From the IMG/VR virus record IMGVR_UViG_3300035698_035366, positions 62,001 to 126,000 of that record: 64,000 nucleotides of DNA; one strand, given 5' to 3'. Shown piece after piece: positions 5,469 through 61,890 of this stretch (positions are counted from its first letter, which is position 1; every line of letters begins with the position of its first letter). Both the position numbers and the translations under genes were made by a program. Source of the DNA: a virus. The notes beneath the pieces were generated by a model. It was not told where the DNA came from and ran no database searches. It saw nothing but the letters and a program-made list of their open reading frames with translations.

Positions 5469-5676
5469 ATATCAATCTAATTAGGGTTATGTCTTCTTGG
5501 GAGCCACATATCACTTCGTAATAAAATGGTCTTGATTCGGCTTCTGCTATAAACGATTCATTGAGAAAATTTACAGGTAGGACATTTCCGCCAATGTTAT
5601 TTTCCTTTAGAATATTTTTCATTCTCATATAATGTTGATATCTACCTTTGAACATAAATGAAAACATCATACCCAC
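5458..5676 (-). CDS. Small protein, divergent member of the C-terminal-motif family
   Basis: The product has 72 residues. The C-terminus CGSQEDITLIRLIYDD keeps the 'EDxxLxRL' pattern of the family with an altered start. The start overlaps the previous gene by 10 bases. ATG codons at residues 1, 3 and 4 are all possible starts. Function unknown. Confidence 0.6.
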   Translation of the reverse strand: MGMMFSFMFKGRYQHYMRMKNILKENNIGGNVLPVNFLNESFIAEAESRPFYYEVICGSQEDITLIRLIYDD

Positions 5677-47653: not shown

Positions 47654-47740
47654 CCAACGTATAATTTATGTGTATGATTGCATGAATAAAACAATTTGAA
47701 TAATATGCAATTTGCAAGAAACATTAAGGAGAGATATATA

Positions 47741-50700
47741 ATGGCACTCGTATCACCAGGCGTAGAAGTCACAGCAACCGATGAAAGTTTCTTTGCCAAC
47801 CCAGGGCAAGGAACAATTCCTTTCATTATGATTGCTACCGCTGAAGACAAGCCAAATCCAGGTAATCCAGCTTTAAATGCACCTGGTACAACACAAGCAA
47901 ACGCTGATAAACTTTTTCTTATCACTAGTCAAAGAGAACTAATCCAAACATTTGGTGAACCAACTTTTGCTCAGGTTCAAGGTACTCCACAACATGGTAA
48001 TGAGACAAACGAATACGGTTTATGGGCCGCGTATAGTTACATGGGGATTTCAAATCGCGCCTATGTTATGCGTGCTGATCTAAACTTGGATCAGTTGCAG
48101 CCAGAAGTTAATGAACCACGTAGTCAAGCACTAAATGGAACGTATTGGTTAGACACCGGAACAACAAATTTTGGTATTTTCCGATCAATCGGTTCCGATG
48201 GCAATCCCGCTACTTCCGCGTTTAATGATTGGTCTGTAAAAACACCATTTGTTGTAGATACGACTGCTGAAGCAAGCACACAACGAGTTTCATCTTTCTT
48301 CGTACCAACAATTGGCGACGCACTAATTGCCGGCGCCGGAGACCTAGTAATTAATGGTGTTACAATACCATTAGCTGGTGGTGAGGACCTAAGCAATGTT
48401 GGACTTGATAATGGTTTGGTTCAGATCATTAACAATGCTGTTATTCCAGGAATTGAAGCTTCAGTTTGGTGGTTTGGTCGCGGTTTAAAGTTGGTAATTA
48501 CAAATACAACGTCGGGATCAATTGATCTAACCGGCTCTGATTCTTCTATCCTAATTGATCTTGGTCTCGGCTCATCAGAGATTGTTCCTGACCGTGCATT
48601 ATTTGACGGAGAAACATTCTTTGCGGTTGTTACAATTGATTTTGAAAACAGAGTTTATGAGTGGATCACCCCAGTTGATGGAAATGGTGTTACTTTGGGA
48701 CCTGCTCAATGGTACCTAGTTGGTACTGATGGTTGGAGAAATGCTGTTCCTTCACAAGTTGAGGGAGATGGCACAGTTGTTACCGCAGCATCAACAATTT
48801 CAGTAACTTTTAGTTTATCAGGAAATACAACTTCAACCCAAACAGTTGTTGCAAGCGCGGCAACCGTCCCAGCGATGGTTGCAGATTTAACAACAGCATT
48901 CGCAACTGAAGTTGCTGATCAACAAGTTGAGTTCGCAGTTGGTGGATCAGGAAGTTTAGTAATTACAAACAATGACGGTGGTTCAATTACGGTATCAGGA
49001 CCACTTGCTGGTTCAACTCAATTGGATATGCCATCCCTAAAAGCTAAAGAGCTATTTTATGCTCCACATACGAACATTCCAGATAATAGTATCGAGGGTG
49101 ATGTTTGGATTAAGACAACTGAGCCAAACAATGGTGCAGATTATCAAGTGGCAATTTTTGATGATTCAATTGGACAGTTCGTTACAGTTAATGCCCCATT
49201 ATTTGCAGATGATACTGCCGCTCTTGCGGCACTGGGACCAAACCCAGCACCAGGTATCCTTTACGTTGAATTTGATGTAACAGATGAAGGTGTTGCTACC
49301 CACGTACTAAAACGTTCTAATGGTGTATCATTTGACCCATTGGTTTATGTGGCACAGGTTGCTGAGCCAACAAATGCTCCTCTAGAAGGAACATTATGGT
49401 ACAACACAAACTTTGATGTTGATATTATGGTAAGCACTGGTACTTCTTGGGTAGGTCTTAACAACCACCCATTCTATGCTAATGCTGATATTATTCTAAA
49501 TGCATCAAAACCAACACAGAAGCCAGTTGGATCACCAAATGGTGTTGCTCTTGTAGAGAATGACATCTGGATTGACACAAGTAATTTGGAGGATTATCCA
49601 ATAATCCGCCGTTATCGTGCAGCATCACAGAGTTTTGAACTAGTAGATAATACAGATCAAACAACACCGTTTGGTATTGTGTTTGCTGATGCCCGTCAAG
49701 ACGATGGTCTTGGTAATGAGGATTCAACCAGTCTTGCAAATAGCGATTTCGTTGATCCAGATGCACCAAATCCATTAACATTCCCTAATGGTTTCCTACT
49801 GTGGAATACACGCTTTAGCACATTGAATGTTAAGGAATGGCAACCAGATGCTCTTCTAGAATTTACAGAGGCAGAGCTTCTTGGAGCAAATGTTGTTCCA
49901 GCACAGTATGAAGTTGGTCTATCCGTATTCCCACCAATCCTTGATGGTGATCAGGGACGTTGGGTGACAATCAGTGGTAACCAGAATGATGGCGCGCCAA
50001 ATATGGCGCGTAATGCACAGAGAGCAATGGTTGTACGTCGAATGGCTGCATCAATTGCTGGAAATGAAGAACTTCGTGCAGAAACAGTGTTCTTCAATCT
50101 TATCGCTACACCAGGTTACCCAGAATTGATTGATGAAATGGTAACATTGAATTTTGATAAGAAGGAAATTGCGTTTATTATTGGTGATACACCAGCTAGA
50201 CTTGCTCCTTCAGGAACATCGATTCAGTCTTGGGCAACGAATGCAGAAAATGCACCAAGTAATGGTGAACTTGCACTAACAACCCGCGATACTAACGTTG
50301 GTATCTATTACCCATGGGGTCTAGGAACCAATATTGACGGGTTTGAGGTTATGGTACCACCATCAGCAATTGCACTAAGAACAATCGCGTTCAGTGATAG
50401 TGTTTCTTATCCATGGTTTGCACCCGCTGGTTTCTCCAGAGGTCGTGTTTCTAACGTGTCAAGTGTTGGTTTCTTGAACGCTGAAGAAGAATACAATCCA
50501 GTTATTCTTAATCAGGGACAACGAGATGTTCTTCAGCTTAATGACATCAATCCAATTGCATTCATGCCTAATCAGGGATTGGTTGTATTTGGACAGAAAA
50601 CACTTCATCCAGTTGACTCTGCTCTAGACAGGGTTAATGTTGTTCGATTGGTGAACTTCTTACGTTATAACTTTGATATTATTGCAAAACCATTCTTGTT

Positions 50701-50944
50701 CGAACCAAACGATCAGATTACTCGCGATTCAGTAACGTCAACATTTGAACGTTTCTTGGGTGATTTGGTTGGTCTAAGAGCACTTTTGGAGTTTGCGGTA
50801 GTCTGTGATTCGAGCAATAATACTCCAGAACGCATTGACAGGAACGAGTTGTGGATTGATATTGCCATCAAACCTGTGAAAAGTATAGAGTTTATTTTCA
50901 TTCCTATCCGCGTTCTAAACACAGGCGACGATTTAACAGCATAA
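47741..50944 (+). CDS. Tail sheath protein (T4 gp18-like), enlarged
   Basis: The product has 1067 residues from ATG 47741 (MALVSPGVEVTATDESFFAN), preceded by AAGGAGAG. The N-terminus (SPGVEVxxxDxS) and the C-terminal region (RFLGDLVGLRALLEFAVVCD, IAIKPVKSIEFIFIPIRV) are typical of contractile sheaths. T4 gp18 has 659 residues; the extra length lies in surface modules with repeated IEGDVWIKTTEPNN / LEGTLWYNTNFDVD / VENDIWIDTSNLED patterns. A strong terminator follows the gene. Confidence 0.92.
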   Translation: MALVSPGVEVTATDESFFANPGQGTIPFIMIATAEDKPNPGNPALNAPGTTQANADKLFLITSQRELIQTFGEPTFAQVQGTPQHGNETNEYGLWAAYSYMGISNRAYVMRADLNLDQLQPEVNEPRSQALNGTYWLDTGTTNFGIFRSIGSDGNPATSAFNDWSVKTPFVVDTTAEASTQRVSSFFVPTIGDALIAGAGDLVINGVTIPLAGGEDLSNVGLDNGLVQIINNAVIPGIEASVWWFGRGLKLVITNTTSGSIDLTGSDSSILIDLGLGSSEIVPDRALFDGETFFAVVTIDFENRVYEWITPVDGNGVTLGPAQWYLVGTDGWRNAVPSQVEGDGTVVTAASTISVTFSLSGNTTSTQTVVASAATVPAMVADLTTAFATEVADQQVEFAVGGSGSLVITNNDGGSITVSGPLAGSTQLDMPSLKAKELFYAPHTNIPDNSIEGDVWIKTTEPNNGADYQVAIFDDSIGQFVTVNAPLFADDTAALAALGPNPAPGILYVEFDVTDEGVATHVLKRSNGVSFDPLVYVAQVAEPTNAPLEGTLWYNTNFDVDIMVSTGTSWVGLNNHPFYANADIILNASKPTQKPVGSPNGVALVENDIWIDTSNLEDYPIIRRYRAASQSFELVDNTDQTTPFGIVFADARQDDGLGNEDSTSLANSDFVDPDAPNPLTFPNGFLLWNTRFSTLNVKEWQPDALLEFTEAELLGANVVPAQYEVGLSVFPPILDGDQGRWVTISGNQNDGAPNMARNAQRAMVVRRMAASIAGNEELRAETVFFNLIATPGYPELIDEMVTLNFDKKEIAFIIGDTPARLAPSGTSIQSWATNAENAPSNGELALTTRDTNVGIYYPWGLGTNIDGFEVMVPPSAIALRTIAFSDSVSYPWFAPAGFSRGRVSNVSSVGFLNAEEEYNPVILNQGQRDVLQLNDINPIAFMPNQGLVVFGQKTLHPVDSALDRVNVVRLVNFLRYNFDIIAKPFLFEPNDQITRDSVTSTFERFLGDLVGLRALLEFAVVCDSSNNTPERIDRNELWIDIAIKPVKSIEFIFIPIRVLNTGDDLTA

Positions 50945-51072: not shown

Positions 51073-52155
51073 ATGAGAATCGAGTCCGATGAAAAACTTG
51101 ACTTTTCCGATGTACTAATTCGTCCAAAACGAAGTGAATTAACTAGTCGGCGTGAAGTAAGCCTAGAGCGCACCTATAAATTTAAGCATTTACAAGACAT
51201 TGAATGGACTGGTATTCCTATCATAGCTACCAATATGGATACGGTTGGTACATTCGATATGGCTATTGCATTAAGTCGACATGGATTAATGACTGCTTTA
51301 CACAAGCATTATCAAATAAGCGACATTGCAGACTTTTTTAAGAATTATCCTAAAATGGAACAAAATAATATGTTCTATTCAATGGGAATATCAACCATGG
51401 ATCATGTTAAATTAAAGGAATTTTCCGAACTGCATCGTTTCCCAAAATTTATTTGCGTTGATGTTGCTAATGGCTATTCTGAAAAGTTTGTTCGGTTTAT
51501 TTCCAAACTCCGTGATGAAGTAGGTGACAAATCGGTTATAATGGCTGGAAATGTTGTTACTGGAGAAATGGTTGAAGAACTTATATTAGCTGGCGCTGAT
51601 ATAATTAAGGTGGGTATCGGCCCAGGATCCGTATGTACGACCCGTACAACAACTGGTGTAGGCTATCCGCAACTTTCTGCTATTATCGAATGTTCTGATG
51701 CAGCACATGGTCTTGGTGGTCTAGTTTGTGCCGACGGTGGATGTACCAATTCGGGAGACATAGCAAAAGCATTTGGTGCAGGTGCTGATTTTGTAATGCT
51801 AGGATCAATGTTCGCTGGTCATGATGAAAGTGGTGGTGAAATAGTTTATGAAACCTTTGCTGGAAAGGGTGGTTCAACCAAAATCCCAAAAAGTGTTAAA
51901 TTTTATGGCATGAGTTCATCCGAGGCAATGGATAAACATTCCGGAGGCGTAGCGGAATACAGAGCATCTGAAGGTAAATCAGTTTTGCTCCCATATCGAG
52001 GACCGGTTGAGAATACAGTTAAACAGATACTTGGTGGCATTAGATCAGCTTGCACCTACACGGGTGCCCATCAATTAAAAGAGCTAAGTAAACGCACAAC
52101 CTTTATTAAAGTTTCTGGAAAACAACAAGTCAATGAAATATATGGCAAGAGTTGA
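51073..52155 (+). CDS. guaC: GMP reductase / IMP dehydrogenase-family enzyme
   Basis: The product has 360 residues without a CBS domain, as in GMP reductase. [20 protein letters not shown] at the start, [15 protein letters not shown], then [20 protein letters not shown] with the catalytic Cys, [20 protein letters not shown], and [13 protein letters not shown] near the C-terminus. It interconverts guanine and adenine nucleotides through IMP. It overlaps the next gene by 4 bases. Confidence 0.88.
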
Positions 52156-52418
52156 TGCCTAAAGTTGAAGATTTGACTCCATTGGAGCAAAATAGATTAT
52201 TGCACGGGCATGAGGTTTGGGATGGTCAATTTGTCACAATAGCCTTTAAATTAATGACTTCACCCCAGGTTGAAAAACAAAAAGATGATATTTTTGAATG
52301 GTTGGAAAATAATACTACTGGGAAATATAAGGTTGTAACCAACATTGGTCACAAACTGGTCGCGAAGATTGAAAAAGAACAAGATGTTATTATGTTTAAA
52401 TTAACATTTCAAATATAA
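52152..52418 (+). CDS. Protein of the C-terminal-motif family
   Basis: The product has 88 residues starting with TTG or, more likely, ATG 52155 ([20 protein letters not shown]). It ends [17 protein letters not shown]. It lies between two metabolic genes and is translationally coupled to guaC. Function unknown. Confidence 0.65.
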
Positions 52419-52431
52419 AAAGGATACAATA

Positions 52432-54462
52432 ATGAGATTAAGCGAATTAAAGAAGATTGAAAAATTACCAAGTTTTACTATTGATCTTGATAATTTCGTC
52501 GAAAATGTAAAAACCAGTATTGATTCAATTAAAGAAACAGTTGATGATATCGCTAATAGTAATGAACCAATAACATGGGAATCATTTGATAAGTTATCAC
52601 TAATAGAAGAAAAATACGGTGATCTCATAGAATTGGCTGCTCACCTAAAAGGCGTTAGGGATGAACCACGTCTCAGAGAAGTTTGGGAAGAGATCATTCC
52701 AATAGCGGATGATTTTGGGAACTGGATGCGCTTCCACCGACGATTTGCTGATAGGCTTACAGAACTACGCGATTCCGGAACGCTAAATGATGAACAACAG
52801 TATATTACGGATGAAGCAGTTAAAAGCTACGAACGTAGCGGATTACTACTTGATGGTGAGCCAAAGAAACGCTTTTCTCAAATATCGTTGCGTTCCAGTG
52901 AACTAGTAAATAATTTCAATAAAAATCTTTTGGATGGAACAAAGGCTTGGTCCTTAAATATAACCGATGAATCGGAATTAGCTGGTGTACCAGAATCCGA
53001 TATGGAAGCCCTAGCTGATATGGCTGAAAGCCGTGGAGAGAAGGGTTGGACAATTACACTTGATTATCCATTATATTCTCCAATTATGGAATATTGCCAA
53101 AATAGGGAACTTCGAAGAATTTGTTCCAAGGCAATGATTACAAAATGCTCAGAATTGGCAGACGATACTAGTTTTGATAACACATCAATTATTAATGAAT
53201 TGATCAAACTTAAAGAAGAATCAGCAAAAATATTAGGGATGAAAACACCAGCCCATTTAAGTGTTGCTAGTAAAATGGTTGAATCACCTGAACAAGTTAT
53301 TGAATTCCTGCGAGATTTAATAGTCAGAACAAAACCACAGGCTGAAAAGGAATTATTCGAGCTCGAAGAGTTCGCCGGGAAAAATGGTCTAGACGGAAAA
53401 ATGCAACCATGGGATAGGGGCTTTTATGCTGAAAAAATGCTACAAAAGAACTTCAAGGTTGATTCAGAAAAGATCCGACAATATTTTATTCTTGATAATG
53501 TTATTGATGGTTTGTTTGGTCTAGTATCACGCCTATATGACATTGAAATCAAAGACGAAACTGATTTAATTGATGATAAATGGGATGACAAGGTTCGATT
53601 CTATCGCCTATACAGAGATGGTGAACATTTTGCTTCGGTATATGCAGACTTTTTTGCTGATTCGAAACGCAAGCGCGGTGGTGCCTGGATGAATGACCCA
53701 GTAACTCGCTGGACCAAACCAGACAAAATTACACAATTACCGGTTGCATATATGGTGATGAATTTCCCATCAGCTACAAAAACTCGTCCAAGTCTTCTAA
53801 CACATAATGACATTGAGACATTGTTCCACGAATTTGGTCACGCCTTGCATCACATGATGACAGAGGTCATCTACAAAGACGCCTCCGGTATACGAGGAGT
53901 TGAATGGGATGCCGTTGAATTACCAAGCCAGCTTATGGAAAACTGGTGCTGGAATGAAGATATTGTACGATCAATGTCATCTCATTGGAAAACTAAAAGA
54001 AAGCTACCAAAGTCACAATTTAAGAATATGCTTGCCGCGAAGAACTTTATGAGTGGTATGGGATTGCTTCGTCAGACAGAAATGGCATTGTTTGATTTCC
54101 TTTTGCATTACGATAGAAAACCAGATGAAACAATTCTTGATGTTCTTACACGTACCCGAGAAGAAACAAAAATATCAGAACCGCTTGAATATGACCGCTT
54201 CCCAAATGGGTTTAGTCATATTTTTGGTGGAGGATACTCGGCGGGATATTTCAGTTATCTTTGGTCTGAGGTTTTAAGTTCTGACACATTCGCCGCCTTT
54301 GAAGAAACTGGTGACGTTTTTAATCCATCAATTGCGGAAAAATTCCGTAAGGAATTATTATCAAAGGGTGGTACAAATAGTATGAGTGAATTATATAGGA
54401 ATTTTAGGGGTCGAGACGTAATATTAGAACCATTCCTTAAAAATCGAGGTATATCCACTTAG
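52432..54462 (+). CDS. M3-family oligopeptidase (PrlC/oligopeptidase A-like)
   Basis: The 676-residue zinc metallopeptidase has HEFGHALHH (HExxH) at about residue 465 and a downstream GVEWDAVELPSQLMENWCW with the third zinc ligand Glu. The C-terminal FGGGYSAGYFSYLWSEVLSS is diagnostic for M3 peptidases. It degrades short peptides in the cytoplasm. All catalytic residues are present. It is rare in phages. Confidence 0.93.
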   Translation: MRLSELKKIEKLPSFTIDLDNFVENVKTSIDSIKETVDDIANSNEPITWESFDKLSLIEEKYGDLIELAAHLKGVRDEPRLREVWEEIIPIADDFGNWMRFHRRFADRLTELRDSGTLNDEQQYITDEAVKSYERSGLLLDGEPKKRFSQISLRSSELVNNFNKNLLDGTKAWSLNITDESELAGVPESDMEALADMAESRGEKGWTITLDYPLYSPIMEYCQNRELRRICSKAMITKCSELADDTSFDNTSIINELIKLKEESAKILGMKTPAHLSVASKMVESPEQVIEFLRDLIVRTKPQAEKELFELEEFAGKNGLDGKMQPWDRGFYAEKMLQKNFKVDSEKIRQYFILDNVIDGLFGLVSRLYDIEIKDETDLIDDKWDDKVRFYRLYRDGEHFASVYADFFADSKRKRGGAWMNDPVTRWTKPDKITQLPVAYMVMNFPSATKTRPSLLTHNDIETLFHEFGHALHHMMTEVIYKDASGIRGVEWDAVELPSQLMENWCWNEDIVRSMSSHWKTKRKLPKSQFKNMLAAKNFMSGMGLLRQTEMALFDFLLHYDRKPDETILDVLTRTREETKISEPLEYDRFPNGFSHIFGGGYSAGYFSYLWSEVLSSDTFAAFEETGDVFNPSIAEKFRKELLSKGGTNSMSELYRNFRGRDVILEPFLKNRGIST

Positions 54463-55509: not shown

Positions 55510-55554
55510 TATTGATATCGATATATAATGATGTTAGTATATAAAATATAAACA

Positions 55555-55895
55555 GTGGGCAGCAATGTCCTGAACCCATAAACTCTATGTTGGTGACTGG
55601 GATGCCTAGTTCATGGCGTAATGATAGCGGGGGTGACAACCTCGAATATAGAGATCAATGGAATGAACCATTAACTGTTTAAGTGATAACGTAATGTTAT
55701 TACACGGGACATGGAATAGGAATGATAGCGGATGCCCGTACCGCCTTGCAAAGGTCAGCTGCCTTTGTTTGTATAGTTCATACGAGATAATTACTTAGAC
55801 CAATATCAGTCGGGTAATTATCAAGAGACTGGCAATGGATCTTCGATGATCTGTTAAAATTGAAAGCATGATATGCCGGCATTCCTATTCCAGAT
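55555..55895 (+). ncRNA. Structured non-coding RNA candidate, about 340 bases, two domains
   Basis: No frame is maintained. First domain: ATGTCC (55565-55570) pairs with GGACAT (55707-55712), enclosing CTCTAT (55583) with ATAGAG (55648) and small hairpins. Second domain: GGAATAGGAATG (55713-55724) pairs perfectly over 12 bases with CATTCCTATTCC (55880-55891), enclosing CAAAGG/CCTTTG and GATAATTAC (55786) with GTAATTATC (55814). Both domains contain AATGATAGCGG (55620 and 55721), so they may be diverged copies. No known family recognised. Confidence 0.65.
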
Positions 55896-55958
55896 CGAAA
55901 AAAGATATTGCAAATATCATTCGCTTATATTATACTACTTAAATAATAAGGAGAAACG

Positions 55959-56114
55959 ATGTTTATTTTTACAATTGCTTGGAGCCAAACAGACCGAGAC
56001 GTTATCGCAGTTGAAGCAAAGACGCGAGACGAAGCTTATGAGAAGATGGTAAAAAGGATTGGAAATAGCTTTAACATCGTTGACACAAGGGAGGTTACAA
56101 AAATAATAGAATAA
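55959..56114 (+). CDS. Small hypothetical protein, 51 residues
   Basis: MFIFTIAWSQTDRDVIAVEA begins after AAGGAG. The frame is clean to a TAA inside an ATAATAGA repeat. The sequence resembles a short beta-alpha-beta unit. It is the only supported gene between the lipoprotein and the Ro60-like gene. Confidence 0.6.
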   Translation: MFIFTIAWSQTDRDVIAVEAKTRDEAYEKMVKRIGNSFNIVDTREVTKIIE

Positions 56115-56147
56115 TAGAATAATAGAATAATAGAATAATAGAATAAT
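56103..56147 (+). repeat. Tandem 8-base repeat (AATAATAG)n
   Basis: About five head-to-tail copies begin at the stop codon of the 55959 gene. They are probably slippage-generated and of variable copy number. Confidence 0.8.
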
Positions 56148-56199
56148 TTTTAAAAAACGAACATTTTTTTATTGTTTTAGTACGAAAATTATAGTATAT

Positions 56200-56207
56200 T
56201 ATAAATA
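56200..56207 (+). promoter_or_regulatory. Late promoter box TATAAATA of the giant RNA
   Basis: An exact late box directly before the structured region. Transcription would start near 56214. Confidence 0.65.
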
Positions 56208-56368
56208 ACAATGAGGCAGGAGCGTAGGAGCAACAAAAACCTCACATAAATTAAATTATTTAGATCGAAGTCGTAGCTGGAGGTAACGTTACCAGTGAAA
56301 GCGGAAGGGCGGTATACCGCGTCCGATAAGATGAGCCTAAGTCGCAGAACGGAACTGGCACGGATACA

Positions 56369-56438
56369 GATCGAAGAGCCGAATGCAAACGGTTATCATT
56401 TGGATTGAAACTGTCGTTTGTAAATAACTTGTTCTTCG
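56369..56438 (+). repeat. Structural module, copy 1
   Basis: GATCGAAGAGCCGAA is followed by stem TGCAAACG/CGTTTGTA. The loop starts GTTATC, then AATAACTT, and the outer stem GAAGAGC/GTTCTTC closes. The nested architecture equals copy 3 with different stem sequences. Confidence 0.65.
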
Positions 56439-56440
56439 TA

Positions 56441-56530
56441 GATCGATTGAGCCGAAGGGTAGTTGGTTATCTCTTATTGAAAGAACGTGTTGCAGCACAT
56501 TAACTTGCATCCAACCCCAATCCTTGCTCA
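56441..56530 (+). repeat. Structural module, copy 2
   Basis: GATCGATTGAGCCGAA, GGTTATCTC, TTAACTTGC and the closing pair TGAGC/GCTCA are present. It carries an extra internal hairpin (GTG-TTGCAG-CAC). Confidence 0.55.
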
Positions 56531-57212
56531 TGATAATTGGTTTCCAATTTCCATAAAAAATTGGTGGTGGAGGCAGCATATAAGGATTAATCCTATTATG
56601 ATACCGCCCCAGGTTTCCAACTTCCTTAAAGAGTTGGTGGCGGATAAAAGTTTTAAGGTAGTGTAATTACCATATGACTCCTCCAAAAGCGGGAAAGAAA
56701 TTTCCCGCTGGATCGAGGCTCTAATAATAACAGGAGCAAGGCGCAGTAGAAAAACCACTCGGTATGTTTATGGGTAAGCTGCATAGACTATAAACGATTA
56801 TACAGATTTGATGCCTGATTCAGCTAAGAAGGCATCTCACGGTGGTGGTGCTGAAACCGCATGATCGTGGGGGTATTCGAGTAAAGCTCGGTACATTTTG
56901 TGGAGGAAGGCTGATTGTGGCACCGACGGAAATCTAGGGTCACCTGTTCTTCAAGGGAGGAGGCACCACAAAGATCGACCTAAATTAGTTTTACTTAGTT
57001 AAACTAAGTTGGGTTGACTTGTTTAGCGATGTATTTGTTGGCTGAAAGCCAATAAAGGTGATTATCCACTGGATAGGTAAGAGGTATACACCTTGGGGCT
57101 ATACATGGCGTTAAATGATGCGTGTAAGGGCGAGCACTGAGTTCAGAGTGCATAGGAAATAAACGGAAGTCGGGAAGCAGTAAGCCTTACGGTAGTCGCT
57201 TCCAAGTCCTAA

Positions 57213-57280
57213 GATCGAAGAGCCGAAGAAATATGGTTATCTTGCAATGATGAACCCCATATTTCATTAACTTGCTCTTT
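57213..57280 (+). repeat. Structural module, copy 3
   Basis: GATCGAAGAGCCGAA, stem GAAATATGG/CCATATTTC (9 perfect pairs), loop TTATCTTGCAATGATGAACC, then ATTAACTT and the closing pair AAGAGC/GCTCTT. Confidence 0.65.
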
Positions 57281-57287
57281 TAATTTT

Positions 57288-57350
57288 GATCGGGGCCGTA
57301 GTATGTGGGTTATCTTACATTCAGAAAACAGTTTCTTGCAGTAAGACCGC
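57288..57350 (+). repeat. Structural module, copy 4 (diverged)
   Basis: GATCGGGGCCGTAGTATGTG is followed by GGTTATCTT and a CTTGCAG end. The order of elements is kept but the stems are shortened. Confidence 0.45.
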
Positions 57351-57703
57351 TAACACTATCGCAATTACTGATTAGTAATCAATTTATTGGTGAAAATCGG
57401 TTTTCGGATGTTTAATATGGATCACTTAGAATGATTTCAATTAAGTTAAACTAGCCGAAGTCCATGTACACTATTTGCCCTTTGTTAGCTGGAAGTCATG
57501 ATCCAGCGAAAGACGATAGATGCGGGAATATGGAAGCAAGAGCGTCTTTATTAGAAAGAACTGGCGATATCCAGGGACGTTTGATAGGGATTTTCAAATA
57601 GCCAAAATGGTTATCGAGGAGTCAAATTCCGGTCCGGAATATCTGGAAAGACGTTGATACGATAACTAATCAATTAGCCAGGGCCTACCCGGCGCTTGGT
57701 TTA

Positions 57704-57732
57704 GAGGGGTTGGTGTAGAACACCTTCCCCTC
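57704..57732 (+). terminator. 3' hairpin of the giant RNA
   Basis: GAGGGG pairs with CCCCTC, with inner GGTGT/ACACC. No T-run follows, so it may be a stable 3' end or processing site rather than a rho-independent terminator. Confidence 0.5.
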
Positions 57733-57801
57733 CTTAATTGAAGTTAATTGAAGATGAATACAGAAGAATAGAACAATTTTTGAAAAACTTGAAAAAAGTT
57801 G

Positions 57802-57830
57802 TTGCTATTCATAAAAAACAGTGTTAGTAT
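57802..57830 (+). promoter_or_regulatory. Sigma70-like promoter between giant RNA and Ro60-like gene
   Basis: TTGCTA (57802-57807), 17-base spacer, TAGTAT (57825-57830). It would produce a leader of about 350 bases for the Ro60-like gene or a separate RNA. Confidence 0.45.
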
Positions 57831-57835
57831 AACGT

Positions 57836-58184
57836 CTCATATAGTAACTTACAGTAAGAGAGGAATACTAAATGGAAATTTTTAGTAGATAGATTTTATT
57901 TTTAGAGAACTTATTTTTTACTTAGAAAAGTATAGTATGATAGTCGGCCGCGCACCTTGAAATAACCGGCATTTCCTTATTATCCGAAAATGCGTGACAG
58001 GATTTTAAGGGTAGAAAACAAAAATGTTTTTTACTTATGATAGATAAATTTTAATGGGCTTGTATTCTATTAGATAGAAGTTACAAACTCTATAATAGTA
58101 GAACATTAAGGGTAACGGTAGTGGCCACTACCGTTACTCTAGATCGGAGCATAAATTGGAGCATTTAAACAGGAGGGCATAACC
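57836..58184 (+). other. AT-rich leader region of the Ro60-like gene
   Basis: No supported gene. It includes a TATAAT (58091-58096), a 26-base perfect palindrome (58112-58137) and an AGGAGGG ribosome binding site before ATG 58185. Part of it may form a further small RNA (GTCGGCCGCG...CCGGC near 57942-57970). Confidence 0.45.
58112..58137. promoter_or_regulatory. Perfect 26-base palindrome, operator or hairpin
   Basis: GTAACGGTAGTGG is followed immediately by its exact reverse complement. It lies about 16 bases after a TATAAT box, so it may be a repressor operator or an RNA hairpin at the 5' end of the Ro60-like mRNA. Confidence 0.6.
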
Positions 58185-59819
58185 ATGTCTAGCTTTAACA
58201 GTCTACGTAACACTAATAATTCGCGCCAGAACGCGGCAACCCCACAGTCACAGCCAATTCCAGGCCGTGAAGAGGAGATGGTCGAGAACAACGCAGGTGG
58301 TTTCACCTTCACCGTCGATCTATGGGACCGTCTTGACCGTTTCCTAATCCTTGGAGTTGAGGGTGGAACATACTACGTTTCAGAAAAGAAGCTCGCAGTT
58401 GACAACGCCAAAAACGTTGTTAAGGCAATTGAGCAGGACGGCCTACGGGTTGTTCAGAGAATTGTTGAAATTAGCGACTCTGGCCGAGCAGCAAAGAACG
58501 ATCCAGCATTGTTTGCTCTAGCACTAGCAGCTAGTGCAGATAATCCGCAGACTCGTCAGGCAGCACTTGTGGCTTTGCCACAGGTAGCTCGTATCGGTAC
58601 ACATCTTTTCCACTTTGCGGATTTCGTACAGAATTTCCGTGGTTGGGGCCGCGCACTTCGCCGGGCAATTGGTGATTGGTATACGAAGCAGGATGTCAGT
58701 AATCTAGCCTATCAGGCAGTTAAGTACCGCCAGCGTGATGGTTGGACCCACCGCGACTTACTCCGTTTGAGTCACCCAAAGACTCGCAACGAATCACGTA
58801 ACGATGTTTTCAAGTGGATTGTAACGGGTAAGAACGTTTCCGATGTTCCAGTTATCGCTGGATTTGAACAGGCACAAACGGCAACTTCACCAAAAGAAAT
58901 TGTACGCTTGATTAACGAATTCAATCTTCCACGTGAGGCAATTCCAACAGAGTTCCTTAACGACGTTAATGTATGGGATGCGCTTCTCCAGAAGATGCCT
59001 TTGCACGCAATGATTCGAAACCTTGGTAAGATGAGCAGCATTGGTCTACTTGCACCAATGAGTAATGCCCAGAACCTGGTTGTTAATAAGCTTTCTAACG
59101 CGGAGGATCTCCGTAGAAGCCGTGTACATCCAATGGCTGTTTTGACAGCTTTGTACACGTACAAGAGTGGTCACGGTATCCGTGGTAGCCTTTCTTGGGA
59201 CGTTAACTCTCAGGTGATGGATGCATTGGACGAATCGTTCTATGGAACTTTCCAGAACGTTGAGCCAACTGGTAAGCCAACTATGCTCGCTCTTGATGTT
59301 TCAGGAAGCATGTCAATGGACAACATTGGTGGCGTCCCAGGACTCACACCGCGTGTTGCTAGTGCTGCGATGGCTATGATTACGGCCCGCACTGAGCCAA
59401 ACTATATGGTTACTGCTTTTACCGGTGGTGGAAGCTGGGGACGTAGTGGTAATGTTGATAATTTGACAGTTCTTGATATCACTCCCCGCCAGCGTATGGA
59501 CGATGTAATTCGGAAGGTAAGTGGCCTTTCATTTGGTGGGACGGATTGTGCATTACCAATGATTTATGCCGATAAGAAGAATTTGGCTATTGACAACTTT
59601 GCGGTTTATACTGATAACGAAACATGGGCGGGTTCGATTCAGCCATCCCAGTCTTTGGTAAATTACCGTAAGAAGAGTGGTCGTGGAGCTCGTCTCGCAG
59701 TGGTGGGAATGACGTCAACGGATTTCACTATCGCTGATCCAAAGGATGCTGGTATGATGGACGTGGTTGGATTCGATTCAGCGGCTCCAGCAATTATGGC
59801 CAACTTCTTTCGAGGTTAA
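58185..59819 (+). CDS. rsr: Ro60/TROVE-domain RNA-binding protein (Rsr-like)
   Basis: The product has 544 residues. The N-terminal TROVE HEAT-repeat ring spans roughly residues 30-340 (DLWDRLDRFLILGVEGGTYY, LPQVARIGTHLFHFADFVQN, WTHRDLLRLSHPKTRN). The C-terminal von Willebrand A-type domain begins LALDVSGSMSMDNIGG with the MIDAS DxSxS. Ro proteins bind Y RNAs and misfolded RNAs and in bacteria act with exoribonucleases. Codon use suggests strong expression. It stands beside a 2.6 kb structured RNA region and is followed by a terminator. Confidence 0.93.
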   Translation: MSSFNSLRNTNNSRQNAATPQSQPIPGREEEMVENNAGGFTFTVDLWDRLDRFLILGVEGGTYYVSEKKLAVDNAKNVVKAIEQDGLRVVQRIVEISDSGRAAKNDPALFALALAASADNPQTRQAALVALPQVARIGTHLFHFADFVQNFRGWGRALRRAIGDWYTKQDVSNLAYQAVKYRQRDGWTHRDLLRLSHPKTRNESRNDVFKWIVTGKNVSDVPVIAGFEQAQTATSPKEIVRLINEFNLPREAIPTEFLNDVNVWDALLQKMPLHAMIRNLGKMSSIGLLAPMSNAQNLVVNKLSNAEDLRRSRVHPMAVLTALYTYKSGHGIRGSLSWDVNSQVMDALDESFYGTFQNVEPTGKPTMLALDVSGSMSMDNIGGVPGLTPRVASAAMAMITARTEPNYMVTAFTGGGSWGRSGNVDNLTVLDITPRQRMDDVIRKVSGLSFGGTDCALPMIYADKKNLAIDNFAVYTDNETWAGSIQPSQSLVNYRKKSGRGARLAVVGMTSTDFTIADPKDAGMMDVVGFDSAAPAIMANFFRG

Positions 59820-59828
59820 CTAAATACG

Positions 59829-59853
59829 GGGGATGGCTTGGCCATCCCCTTTA
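59829..59853 (+). terminator. Rho-independent terminator after the Ro60-like gene
   Basis: GGGGATGGC pairs with GCCATCCCC around TTG, followed by TTTATT. Confidence 0.85.
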
Positions 59854-59857
59854 TTGC

Positions 59858-60053
59858 TTGACAAACGGAAATATACGTCTACTTAGTAGATGGTATCAAG
59901 CAATTGATCGACCACCCCTGCTCCTGTTAATTGGGGTGACTCGGCGGCATTTTTTAATATTGCCGTATTACGAAAAGTGATCAACACGATCACATTTTCC
60001 GCTCCTCCTGTAGAACGGGCCGCGCAATGAACGCGTCGGCCCGTTCTTTCTTT
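59858..60053 (+). ncRNA. Small structured RNA candidate downstream of the Ro60-like gene
   Basis: It starts with a TTGACA (59858) lacking a good -10. Hairpins: CACCCC/GGGGTG (about 59912-59937), GGCA/TGCC, GTGATC/GATCAC, and a strong terminator at 60012-60053. The size (about 170-190 bases) and position next to a Ro gene are those expected of a bacterial Y RNA, but I could not identify the Y-RNA core sequence. The antisense frame here is not supported. Confidence 0.45.
60012..60053 (+). terminator. Strong rho-independent terminator
   Basis: AGAACGGGCCG pairs with CGGCCCGTTCT (11 pairs), followed by TTCTTT. Confidence 0.85.
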
Positions 60054-61302: not shown

Positions 61303-61890
61303 ATGGTGGAAACGTTAAATAAATTCGGAGTTCCGGTAGACGGTGAAAGAGCTGGTATGCTTATGCCAAAGCTCACAAACCGCTTTCGCGTTCGTCTAAC
61401 AAATTTCGGCCCGCTTAATTCGGCACAATCAGTAGATCTATCACGTCAGGTTATATCGGTTGCAAAGCCAAACTTAACACATGAAGAAGTTATGGTTCAT
61501 AGTTATAACTCAATTGCTTACTTTGCTGGTAAACATGCATGGCAAACTGTTGATCTAGTAGCACGTGATGACATCACAAACGCTGTAACGCGCCTTGTGT
61601 ATCATCAGGTACAGAAACAGATGAACCACTTTGAACAGACTAGCCCAATTGCTGGTTCTAACTACAAATTCGGTATGGTTGTTGAAACACTAGACGGTGG
61701 AAACGATGGTGTGTTGGAAAAATGGGAACTGGAAGGTTGCTTCCTAACTAATATTGCTACGGAAGGTCTAAATTATGAATCTGCAAATGCGCAGACCATT
61801 ACGATGACAATTCGTTACGATAACGCAACACTACAGGATGGTCTACAGACACAGACACCAGAGCTTCTAACAGGATTGACGAGAGTTTAA
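61303..61890 (+). CDS. Tail tube protein (T4 gp19-like)
   Basis: The 195-residue protein has the tube fold pattern NRFRVRLTNFGPLNSAQSVD, a central VARDDITNAVTRLVYHQVQK with QMNHFEQ, and WELEGCFLTNIATEGLNYES then TITMTIRYDNA at the C-terminus. It forms the inner tube of the contractile tail. AAGGAGAT precedes the ATG. Confidence 0.9.
   Translation: MVETLNKFGVPVDGERAGMLMPKLTNRFRVRLTNFGPLNSAQSVDLSRQVISVAKPNLTHEEVMVHSYNSIAYFAGKHAWQTVDLVARDDITNAVTRLVYHQVQKQMNHFEQTSPIAGSNYKFGMVVETLDGGNDGVLEKWELEGCFLTNIATEGLNYESANAQTITMTIRYDNATLQDGLQTQTPELLTGLTRV

What the first reader, a model, noticed from the sequence alone, without database searches (positions are those of the whole stretch)
55510..60053. Ro60-like protein embedded in a phage island of large structured RNAs
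Between the lysis cassette and the Ro60/TROVE gene lie about 2.6 kb with only one small gene and dense RNA structure, and a further structured RNA follows the Ro gene. Bacterial Ro proteins are known to work with adjacent Y RNAs. Here the neighbouring RNAs are far larger than Y RNAs. Inference: the Ro ring may bind, stabilise or be guided by these RNAs late in infection, or form a phage ribonucleoprotein used in host RNA turnover.
Basis: partly seen in the sequence, partly recalled or inferred. Interest (0 to 1): 0.9.

Follow-up and report, generated by a model that had tools for sequence, protein, structure and literature searches.

The report
Phage Ro60 with Y-RNA array
A giant bacteriophage carries its own copy of the RNA-handling ring protein Ro60, and the long gene-free stretch beside it encodes several copies of the RNA hairpin that Ro60 binds (Y RNA) plus a separate, widespread knotted phage RNA that appears not to have been catalogued before.

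Summary
The observation largely holds; the interpretation changes. The window is part of a 296-kb phage record. ORF 58185-59819 is a genuine Ro60 orthologue. The 2.7 kb before it is essentially non-coding, yet folding energy does not set it apart; comparative evidence does. (1) The "far larger RNAs" contain canonical Y-RNA Ro-binding hairpins: a covariance model trained only on other phages hits 57220-57277 (E 4e-12), 56376-56434 (E 1.2e-7) and, weakly, 56449-56529. A fourth copy is tentative. Y-module arrays beside Ro genes are common in phages, so this is an unusually long, tRNA-free variant of a known kind. (2) The upstream RNA (core 55556-55670) is not a Y RNA but a pseudoknotted phage RNA with no Rfam match, found in about 75 phage records with strong covariation. 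A direct pseudoknot test was decisive: compensated forms gave 40 and 42 contig hits, mismatched forms 9 and 1, none of them family members. It also occurs away from Ro, beside phage polA and inside tRNA islands, so it is probably not a Ro partner. Best reading: a phage Ro RNP locus with a multi-module Y RNA next to an independent new RNA family. Transcription and binding are untested.

The parts
55512..55540 (+). promoter-like site for RNA1 (TTGATA-17-TAGTAT)
   Evidence: relative L010 has TTGCGA-17-TATAAT at the matching place (5610-5638). Scan totals are at chance level; only the shared position is informative
55556..55670 (+). RNA1 core: pseudoknotted phage RNA
   Evidence: covariance model R2 built without the window, E 2.2e-12; covariation in 40 sequences; pseudoknot test
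55713..55891 (+). RNA1 second domain, closed by GGAATAGGAATG / CATTCCTATTCC and followed by AGATCG
   Evidence: sequence; similarly placed closed domain ending in GATCG in relatives
55959..56114 (+). small ORF, 51 aa, preceded by AAGGAG; no family match; not seen in L010
56172..56200 (+). promoter-like site TTGTTT-17-TATATT for the Y-module RNA
   Evidence: below the scan's cut-off in the window; lies in a conserved block, 79% over 75 nt with L010; L010 site TTGATT-17-TATATT
56376..56434 (+). Y module A (Ro-binding hairpin)
   Evidence: model R1, E 1.2e-7
56449..56529 (+). Y module B (longer apical part, weak upper stem)
   Evidence: model R1 filters off, E 4.8e-4; motif with 0 expected in shuffles
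56536..56651 (+). wcaG-like RNA element
   Evidence: Rfam RF01761, 56.2 bits, gathering 42
57220..57277 (+). Y module C (Ro-binding hairpin)
   Evidence: model R1, E 4e-12
57293..57480 (+). Y module D, with about 150-nt apical insert (tentative)
   Evidence: 5' motif GGGCCGTAG..GGGTTATC and a loosely complementary 3' strand; not significant with model R1
57704..57732 (+). strong hairpin near the end of the Y-module RNA
   Evidence: sequence; z -3 to -5 around it
58112..58137 (+). 26-nt near-perfect hairpin, followed by AGATCG and the Ro ribosome-binding site
   Evidence: z -4.8
58185..59819 (+). Ro60/Rsr orthologue, 544 aa
   Evidence: conserved H197, K180, R184 and DVSGSM
59828..59850 (+). 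intrinsic-terminator-like hairpin after Ro
59855..60046 (+). downstream structured element: GCTCCTCCTGTAGA at 60001-60014, then terminator-like hairpin
   Evidence: conserved only in L010 and the near-identical L009

Best explanation
This is a phage-encoded Ro ribonucleoprotein locus lying between the tail-sheath and tail-tube genes of a jumbo phage. It consists of a Ro60 orthologue and, just upstream and on the same strand, a 1.5-1.9 kb noncoding unit that carries three, probably four, Y-type Ro-binding hairpins separated by other domains. Proposed mechanism: Ro protein binds each hairpin on the outside of its ring. Binding stabilises the RNA and lets the non-Ro domains of the Y RNA gate the ring or recruit a host exonuclease such as PNPase, so that the phage steers decay or quality control of structured RNA (rRNA, tRNA) during infection. 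RNA1, the upstream RNA, is a separate pseudoknotted phage RNA that shares the intergenic slot and is probably not a Ro ligand. Shown here: Ro orthology, Ro-binding modules, RNA1 structure by covariation, conserved gene order. Inferred: transcription, processing at AGATCG borders, Ro binding, function.
For: Ro orthologue with the Y-contact histidine conserved (H187 in animals, PMC4030889; H197 here) and the residues I recall as contacting misfolded RNA, K170/R174 (K180/R184 here). Model R1, trained on 11 modules from other phages, finds modules A and C as its only significant hits in 64 kb and B with filters off. The same model gives 84 hits up to E 1 in 79 loci (1.4 Mb), all on the plus strand and most within about 1 kb of Ro. 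The modules covary: 94.7% of cells paired, covariation score 0.758 against 0.283 shuffled. The invariant C after the lower stem matches the bulged cytidine that defines the Ro site (PMC4726728, PMC4030889). Relative L010 has the same layout with 3-4 modules. About a dozen jumbo relatives keep sheath-Ro-tube order, including cultured Sinorhizobium phage Phosso and Agrobacterium phage Atu_ph07. RNA1 without Ro nearby.
Against: No expression data. No tRNA-like module, which many bacterial Y RNAs have. Rfam's own models do not call any Y family here. Module D is tentative and module B is weak. Only one relative (L010) carries the expanded island, so structure between the modules is not covariation-tested. 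The nuclease-recruitment role rests on Deinococcus work by others; no PNPase link was tested.
Confidence: 0.7

Rival explanations
1. The island is one uncleaved, multivalent RNA that gathers several Ro rings (and perhaps RNA1) into one large phage particle.
For: No strong plus-strand terminator between the RNA2 promoter-like site and the end of Ro. Modules lie in pairs 14-15 nt apart. Other phages pack 3-5 modules into under 800 nt, too close for separate promoters.
Against: The strand-biased AGATCG hexamer at module borders (34 forward, 3 reverse) looks more like cutting or unit boundaries. A lone Y module 140 kb away suggests modules work singly.
Confidence: 0.2
2. The modules are regulatory leaders: Ro binds its own transcript to control its synthesis, and the array is a titration device rather than an effector RNA.
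For: Nine jumbo-phage contigs carry a permuted Ro-type site (CCTTGCTC-hairpin-GAGCCGAA) immediately before or overlapping the Ro ribosome-binding site.
Against: That leader site is absent in the window and in L010. The modules here lie 0.7-1.8 kb upstream, with other domains between.
Confidence: 0.15
3. Counter-defence: the modules and RNA1 are decoys or protectors against host RNases that attack tRNA during infection, with Ro as stabiliser.
For: RNA1 sits within phage tRNA islands, 14-22 nt from tRNA genes in several phages. The lone Y module follows a phage GluRS-like gene in a tRNA-bearing region. A decoy role for YrlA has been suggested (PMC7790460).
Against: No nuclease identified; evidence is position only; no tRNA mimicry detected in the window's modules.
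Confidence: 0.15
4. Non-functional spacer or decayed genes.
For: Folding energy is no lower than in coding sequence; little DNA similarity to relatives.
Against: Independent-model hits and covariation and the pseudoknot substitution test.
Confidence: 0.03

Closest known systems
Bacterial Ro60 (Rsr) with Y RNAs: Deinococcus DrY, Salmonella YrlA/YrlB
   Same: Ro orthologue next to RNAs with the Ro-binding helix and bulged C
   Different: several modules in a 1.5-1.9 kb unit, long non-tRNA-like domains between them, in a jumbo-phage structural gene cluster
Phage Ro-like RNA-binding proteins of mycobacterio-, gordonia-, streptomyces- and microbacterium phages
   Same: Ro orthologues, mostly 38-51% identical; Y modules beside the gene
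   Different: many phage arrays carry tRNA halves around the modules (Rfam tRNA hit); none seen here
Jumbo-phage TROVE proteins noted in the survey PMC7824862
   Same: presence of TROVE genes in some jumbo phages; RNA-repair context proposed
   Different: the passage found does not describe Y arrays or RNA1
GOLLD and ROOL large phage RNAs (PMC12286853)
   Same: structured phage RNAs of unknown function; RNA1 relatives also lie near tRNA genes
   Different: no sequence or structure match; RNA1 core is only about 115 nt
wcaG RNA (RF01761)
   Same: significant match at 56536-56651
   Different: described upstream of polysaccharide or high-light genes in cyanophages (PMC2864571); here inside a Ro-associated noncoding island

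Membership tests
Ro60/Rsr (TROVE) protein | TROVE ring domain plus vWA domain | tested here: met
   Pfam PF05731 and PF25045 above cut-off; full-length matches to 2nvo and 1yvp
Ro60/Rsr (TROVE) protein | Y-RNA contact histidine and misfolded-RNA residues | tested here: met
   H197, K180, R184 align with Xenopus H187, K170, R174; role of H187 from PMC4030889, of K170/R174 from memory
Ro60/Rsr (TROVE) protein | binds Y RNA | not testable with these tools
   needs a binding assay
Y RNA | Ro-binding helix with bulged C and opposite-strand bulge | tested here: met
   modules A, C strong and B weak by covariance model; bulged C invariant in the model set; feature as defined in PMC4726728
Y RNA | encoded next to a Ro gene | tested here: met
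   window coordinates; for other phages
Y RNA | tRNA-like module (YrlA subgroup) | tested here: not met
   no tRNA-like element by ARAGORN or Rfam; so not filed as YrlA
Y RNA | small separate RNA of roughly 80-130 nt | not testable with these tools
   transcript ends unknown; modules lie in a longer noncoding unit
GOLLD / ROOL / OLE | match to the Rfam covariance model | tested here: not met
   no hit at gathering or at E up to 10
wcaG RNA | match to the Rfam covariance model | tested here: met
   56.2 bits against gathering 42
wcaG RNA | lies in the 5' UTR of polysaccharide or high-light genes | tested here: not met
   next sizeable gene on the strand is Ro, 1.5 kb away
any Rfam 15 family, for RNA1 | significant model match | tested here: not met
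   no credible hit for the window, L010, L302 or L041 at E up to 1-10

The most novel reading that the evidence does not exclude
RNA1 founds a new class of phage noncoding RNA: a pseudoknotted core of about 115 nt, spread over jumbo phages, phages with a polA neighbour and tRNA-island phages, acting in trans on translation or tRNA, and in this lineage placed next to a multivalent Ro-Y RNA scaffold.
Probability: 0.6. Interest if true: 0.85.

Novelty: new variant of a known kind. Interest (0 to 1): 0.72.

Why it matters
Bacterial Ro proteins and Y RNAs have been studied in few organisms, and what phages do with them is open. This locus shows that Ro genes in a jumbo-phage lineage sit at a fixed place in the virion gene cluster with recognisable cognate RNAs, and the lineage has a cultured member (Sinorhizobium phage Phosso), so the question can be tested. 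RNA1 is a separate gain: a structure supported by a clean compensatory-mutation test in about 75 phage records, without an Rfam entry.

Tried and rejected
Single-protein scan with the window's Ro found nothing; alignment-based scans were needed. Blastn of the island, of RNA1 and of RNA1 relatives against named phages found nothing. Folding energy as evidence of structure: rejected, no contrast with coding DNA. GOLLD, ROOL, OLE and tRNA: no match. RNA1 as a Ro partner: rejected as the default, because it occurs without Ro nearby. The first iterated profile of RNA1 drifted into tail-tube coding sequence at its 3' end, so the core was redefined by hand and by covariance model. RNA1 in bacterial genomes: 9 pattern matches in 84,980 species, only one marginal model hit (E 0.0023), none strong. 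RNA1 was not found in Atu_ph07, the three actinophages checked, or (E 0.8 only) PA5oct. Key papers on bacterial Y RNA (Chen 2014; Sim 2020) are not held, so what they say about phage Y RNAs could not be checked.
Full report
WHAT IS THERE. The window is positions 62001-126000 of a 296,119-base virus record. The gene order around the finding is tail sheath (47696-50944), IMPDH/GMP-reductase-like gene, M3 peptidase (52432-54462), three small genes of a lysis-like cassette, then 2.7 kb with one small ORF, then Ro (58185-59819), then tail tube (61303-61890). The lysis reading is from sequence appearance only; Pfam gave nothing for those genes.

THE PROTEIN. The 544-aa product has TROVE and Ro60 vWA domains above Pfam cut-offs and aligns over nearly its whole length with Deinococcus Rsr (2nvo, E 8e-129) and Xenopus Ro (1yvp, E 8e-126). 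The histidine that contacts Y RNA (H187 in animals, PMC4030889) is H197 here. K170 and R174, known to me as contacts for misfolded RNA, are K180 and R184. The MIDAS-type DVSGSM motif is intact.

RELATIVES. Cultured phages Sinorhizobium Phosso and Agrobacterium Atu_ph07 carry Ro at the same place, between sheath and tail tube. PA5oct has a homing endonuclease there. About a dozen uncultured jumbo-phage contigs share the sheath-Ro-tube order. One, L010, has the full layout of the window: M3 peptidase, the same three small genes, 1.9 kb noncoding, Ro (with a frameshift or assembly error), and a downstream element. L009 is nearly identical to the window but starts only 1.4 kb before the tail tube.

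Y MODULES. A repeated motif, GCCGNNG-N(5-8)-GGTTATC, occurs three times in the island and is expected 0.00 times in shuffled windows. It is the 5' strand of the Y-RNA Ro site; the 3' strand ends ACTTGCYC. The resemblance to vertebrate Y RNA was first noticed from memory, so it was tested. The same motif lies close to Ro genes in many other phages. A covariance model (R1) made from 11 modules of other phages, with neither the window nor L010 in it, finds 57220-57277 (E 4e-12) and 56376-56434 (E 1.2e-7) as its only significant hits in 64 kb. With filters off over the 4.7-kb region, 56449-56529 follows (E 4.8e-4); the fourth candidate is not significant and rests on its 5' motif and a loosely matching 3' strand around a 150-nt insert. 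L010 has three modules by the model and a fourth by eye. Over 79 loci R1 gives 84 hits up to E 1, all on the plus strand, most within about 1 kb of Ro, often two to five per locus. On 68 aligned modules 94.7% of cells pair and the covariation score is 0.758 against 0.283 in shuffles; this alignment is fitted to the structure, so the numbers lean towards it (versions slid by one to three columns reach at most 48% paired).

RNA1. The first RNA, 55556-55670, belongs to a different family. Its relatives share CTGAACCCATA, a variable stem strand, GGTGACTGGG, a hairpin, TAAAGGTA, a second hairpin and the other stem strand. Model R2, built from 12 relatives without the window, hits the window once, at E 2.2e-12, and 40 sequences in all. 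In the 12-sequence MAFFT alignment, not fitted by a covariance model, 96% of cells pair, 15 of 21 pairs change on both sides, and none of 500 shuffles reaches any measure; the structure was derived from one of these sequences, which favours it somewhat. In 40 sequences the pseudoknot helix, which the model cannot represent, is paired in every sequence with two-sided changes at two positions.

A PREDICTION TEST. If CCCA pairs with TGGG, then CCTA should go with TAGG and mixed forms should be missing. Scans of 2.9 million viral contigs gave 40 stretches for CCCA/TGGG, 42 for CCTA/TAGG, 9 for CCTA/TGGG and 1 for CCCA/TAGG. R2 confirms 41 of the 42 compensated ones and none of the 10 mixed ones (best E 0.54). 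Cautions: R2's training set held one CCTA/TAGG member, and contigs of related phages are not independent events.

WHERE RNA1 OCCURS. Between sheath and tube with Ro; between sheath and tube without Ro (for example L324, L056, L287, L036, L055); upstream of a phage DNA polymerase I gene (L302, L294, L300); and inside tRNA islands, 14-22 nt from a tRNA gene in L343, L363, L360, L351 and L365. Counting without shared contigs gives about 75 records. In L055, L036 and L101 a terminator-like hairpin follows it. This spread says that RNA1 is its own unit and not a Ro accessory. It has no Rfam match. Among six named phages searched whole, only Phosso has it (E 4.3e-8).

OTHER FEATURES. A wcaG element lies at 56536-56651. 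The hexamer AGATCG marks borders: after RNA1, before Y modules, before the Ro ribosome-binding site. In 12 phages it occurs 34 times forward and 3 reverse in the sheath-Ro interval, seven times denser than elsewhere (the phages are related, so the nominal p overstates). A processing site is one reading. A further Y module lies 140 kb away in the same record, just after a GluRS-like gene in a region with tRNA genes.

WHAT WAS NOT SUPPORTED. Energy-based folding does not distinguish the island from coding DNA. Promoter-like counts equal chance; only their conserved positions argue for them. The downstream element (59855-60046) is conserved in one distinct relative only.

MECHANISM. Literature: Y RNA binds the outside of the Ro ring, Ro stabilises Y RNA, and in Deinococcus the Y RNA tethers Ro to PNPase for decay of structured RNA (PMC4726728, PMC7790460). 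Inferred here: the phage supplies Ro and several Y modules so that Ro is loaded and gated during infection, with unknown partners on the non-Ro domains. I give the anatomy about 0.85 and the decay-steering role about 0.35; the stated 0.7 is for the explanation as a locus-level model.

VERDICT. A real and informative locus. The Ro part is a new variant of a known kind (phage Ro-Y locus with a long multi-module, tRNA-free array). RNA1 is a strong candidate for a new RNA family and is the more novel piece, though not what the finding proposed.

Noticed in passing
L334:3164-3230 (record position 260663-260729): A second, lone Y module (E 2e-4) just after the stop codon of a GluRS-like gene, in a region with four tRNA genes; preceded by AGATCG.
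   Followed up: partly
window 55892, 56262, 56368, 56440, 56972, 57212, 58141 and sheath-Ro intervals of other jumbo phages: AGATCG hexamer at borders of RNA domains, 34 forward against 3 reverse in 12 phages; possible RNA processing or protein site, unexplained.
   Followed up: partly
L034:8096, L041:6696, L045:6708, L046:3424, L058:6030, L089:9915, L093:9942, L314:2401, L039:5935: Permuted Ro-type hairpin immediately before or overlapping the Ro ribosome-binding site in relatives; suggests that Ro controls its own synthesis. Absent in the window and L010.
   Followed up: partly
L343, L363, L360, L351, L365: RNA1 relatives inside phage tRNA islands, 14-22 nt from tRNA genes; some of these islands also have tmRNA-like calls.
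   Followed up: partly
L103:9485-9954 and L142:9624-9816: Y modules interleaved with tRNA halves (D arm, T arm), as if the anticodon arm of a tRNA were replaced by a Ro site; Rfam tRNA hit at L142 9688-9808.
   Followed up: no
window 60001-60014; L010 9837-9850: Shared GCTCCTCCTGTAGA (contains the anti-Shine-Dalgarno-like CTCCT) before a terminator-like hairpin, downstream of Ro.
   Followed up: no
L010:3371-4599: TnpB-like transposon ORFs between the M3 peptidase and the lysis-like genes in the closest distinct relative.
   Followed up: no
window 51073-54462: IMPDH/GMP-reductase-like and M3 oligopeptidase genes within the tail gene cluster; PA5oct also has an oligopeptidase a few kb upstream of its sheath.
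   Followed up: no
L058:9691-9908: Group I intron (Rfam 89 bits) just before the tail tube gene of a relative.
   Followed up: no
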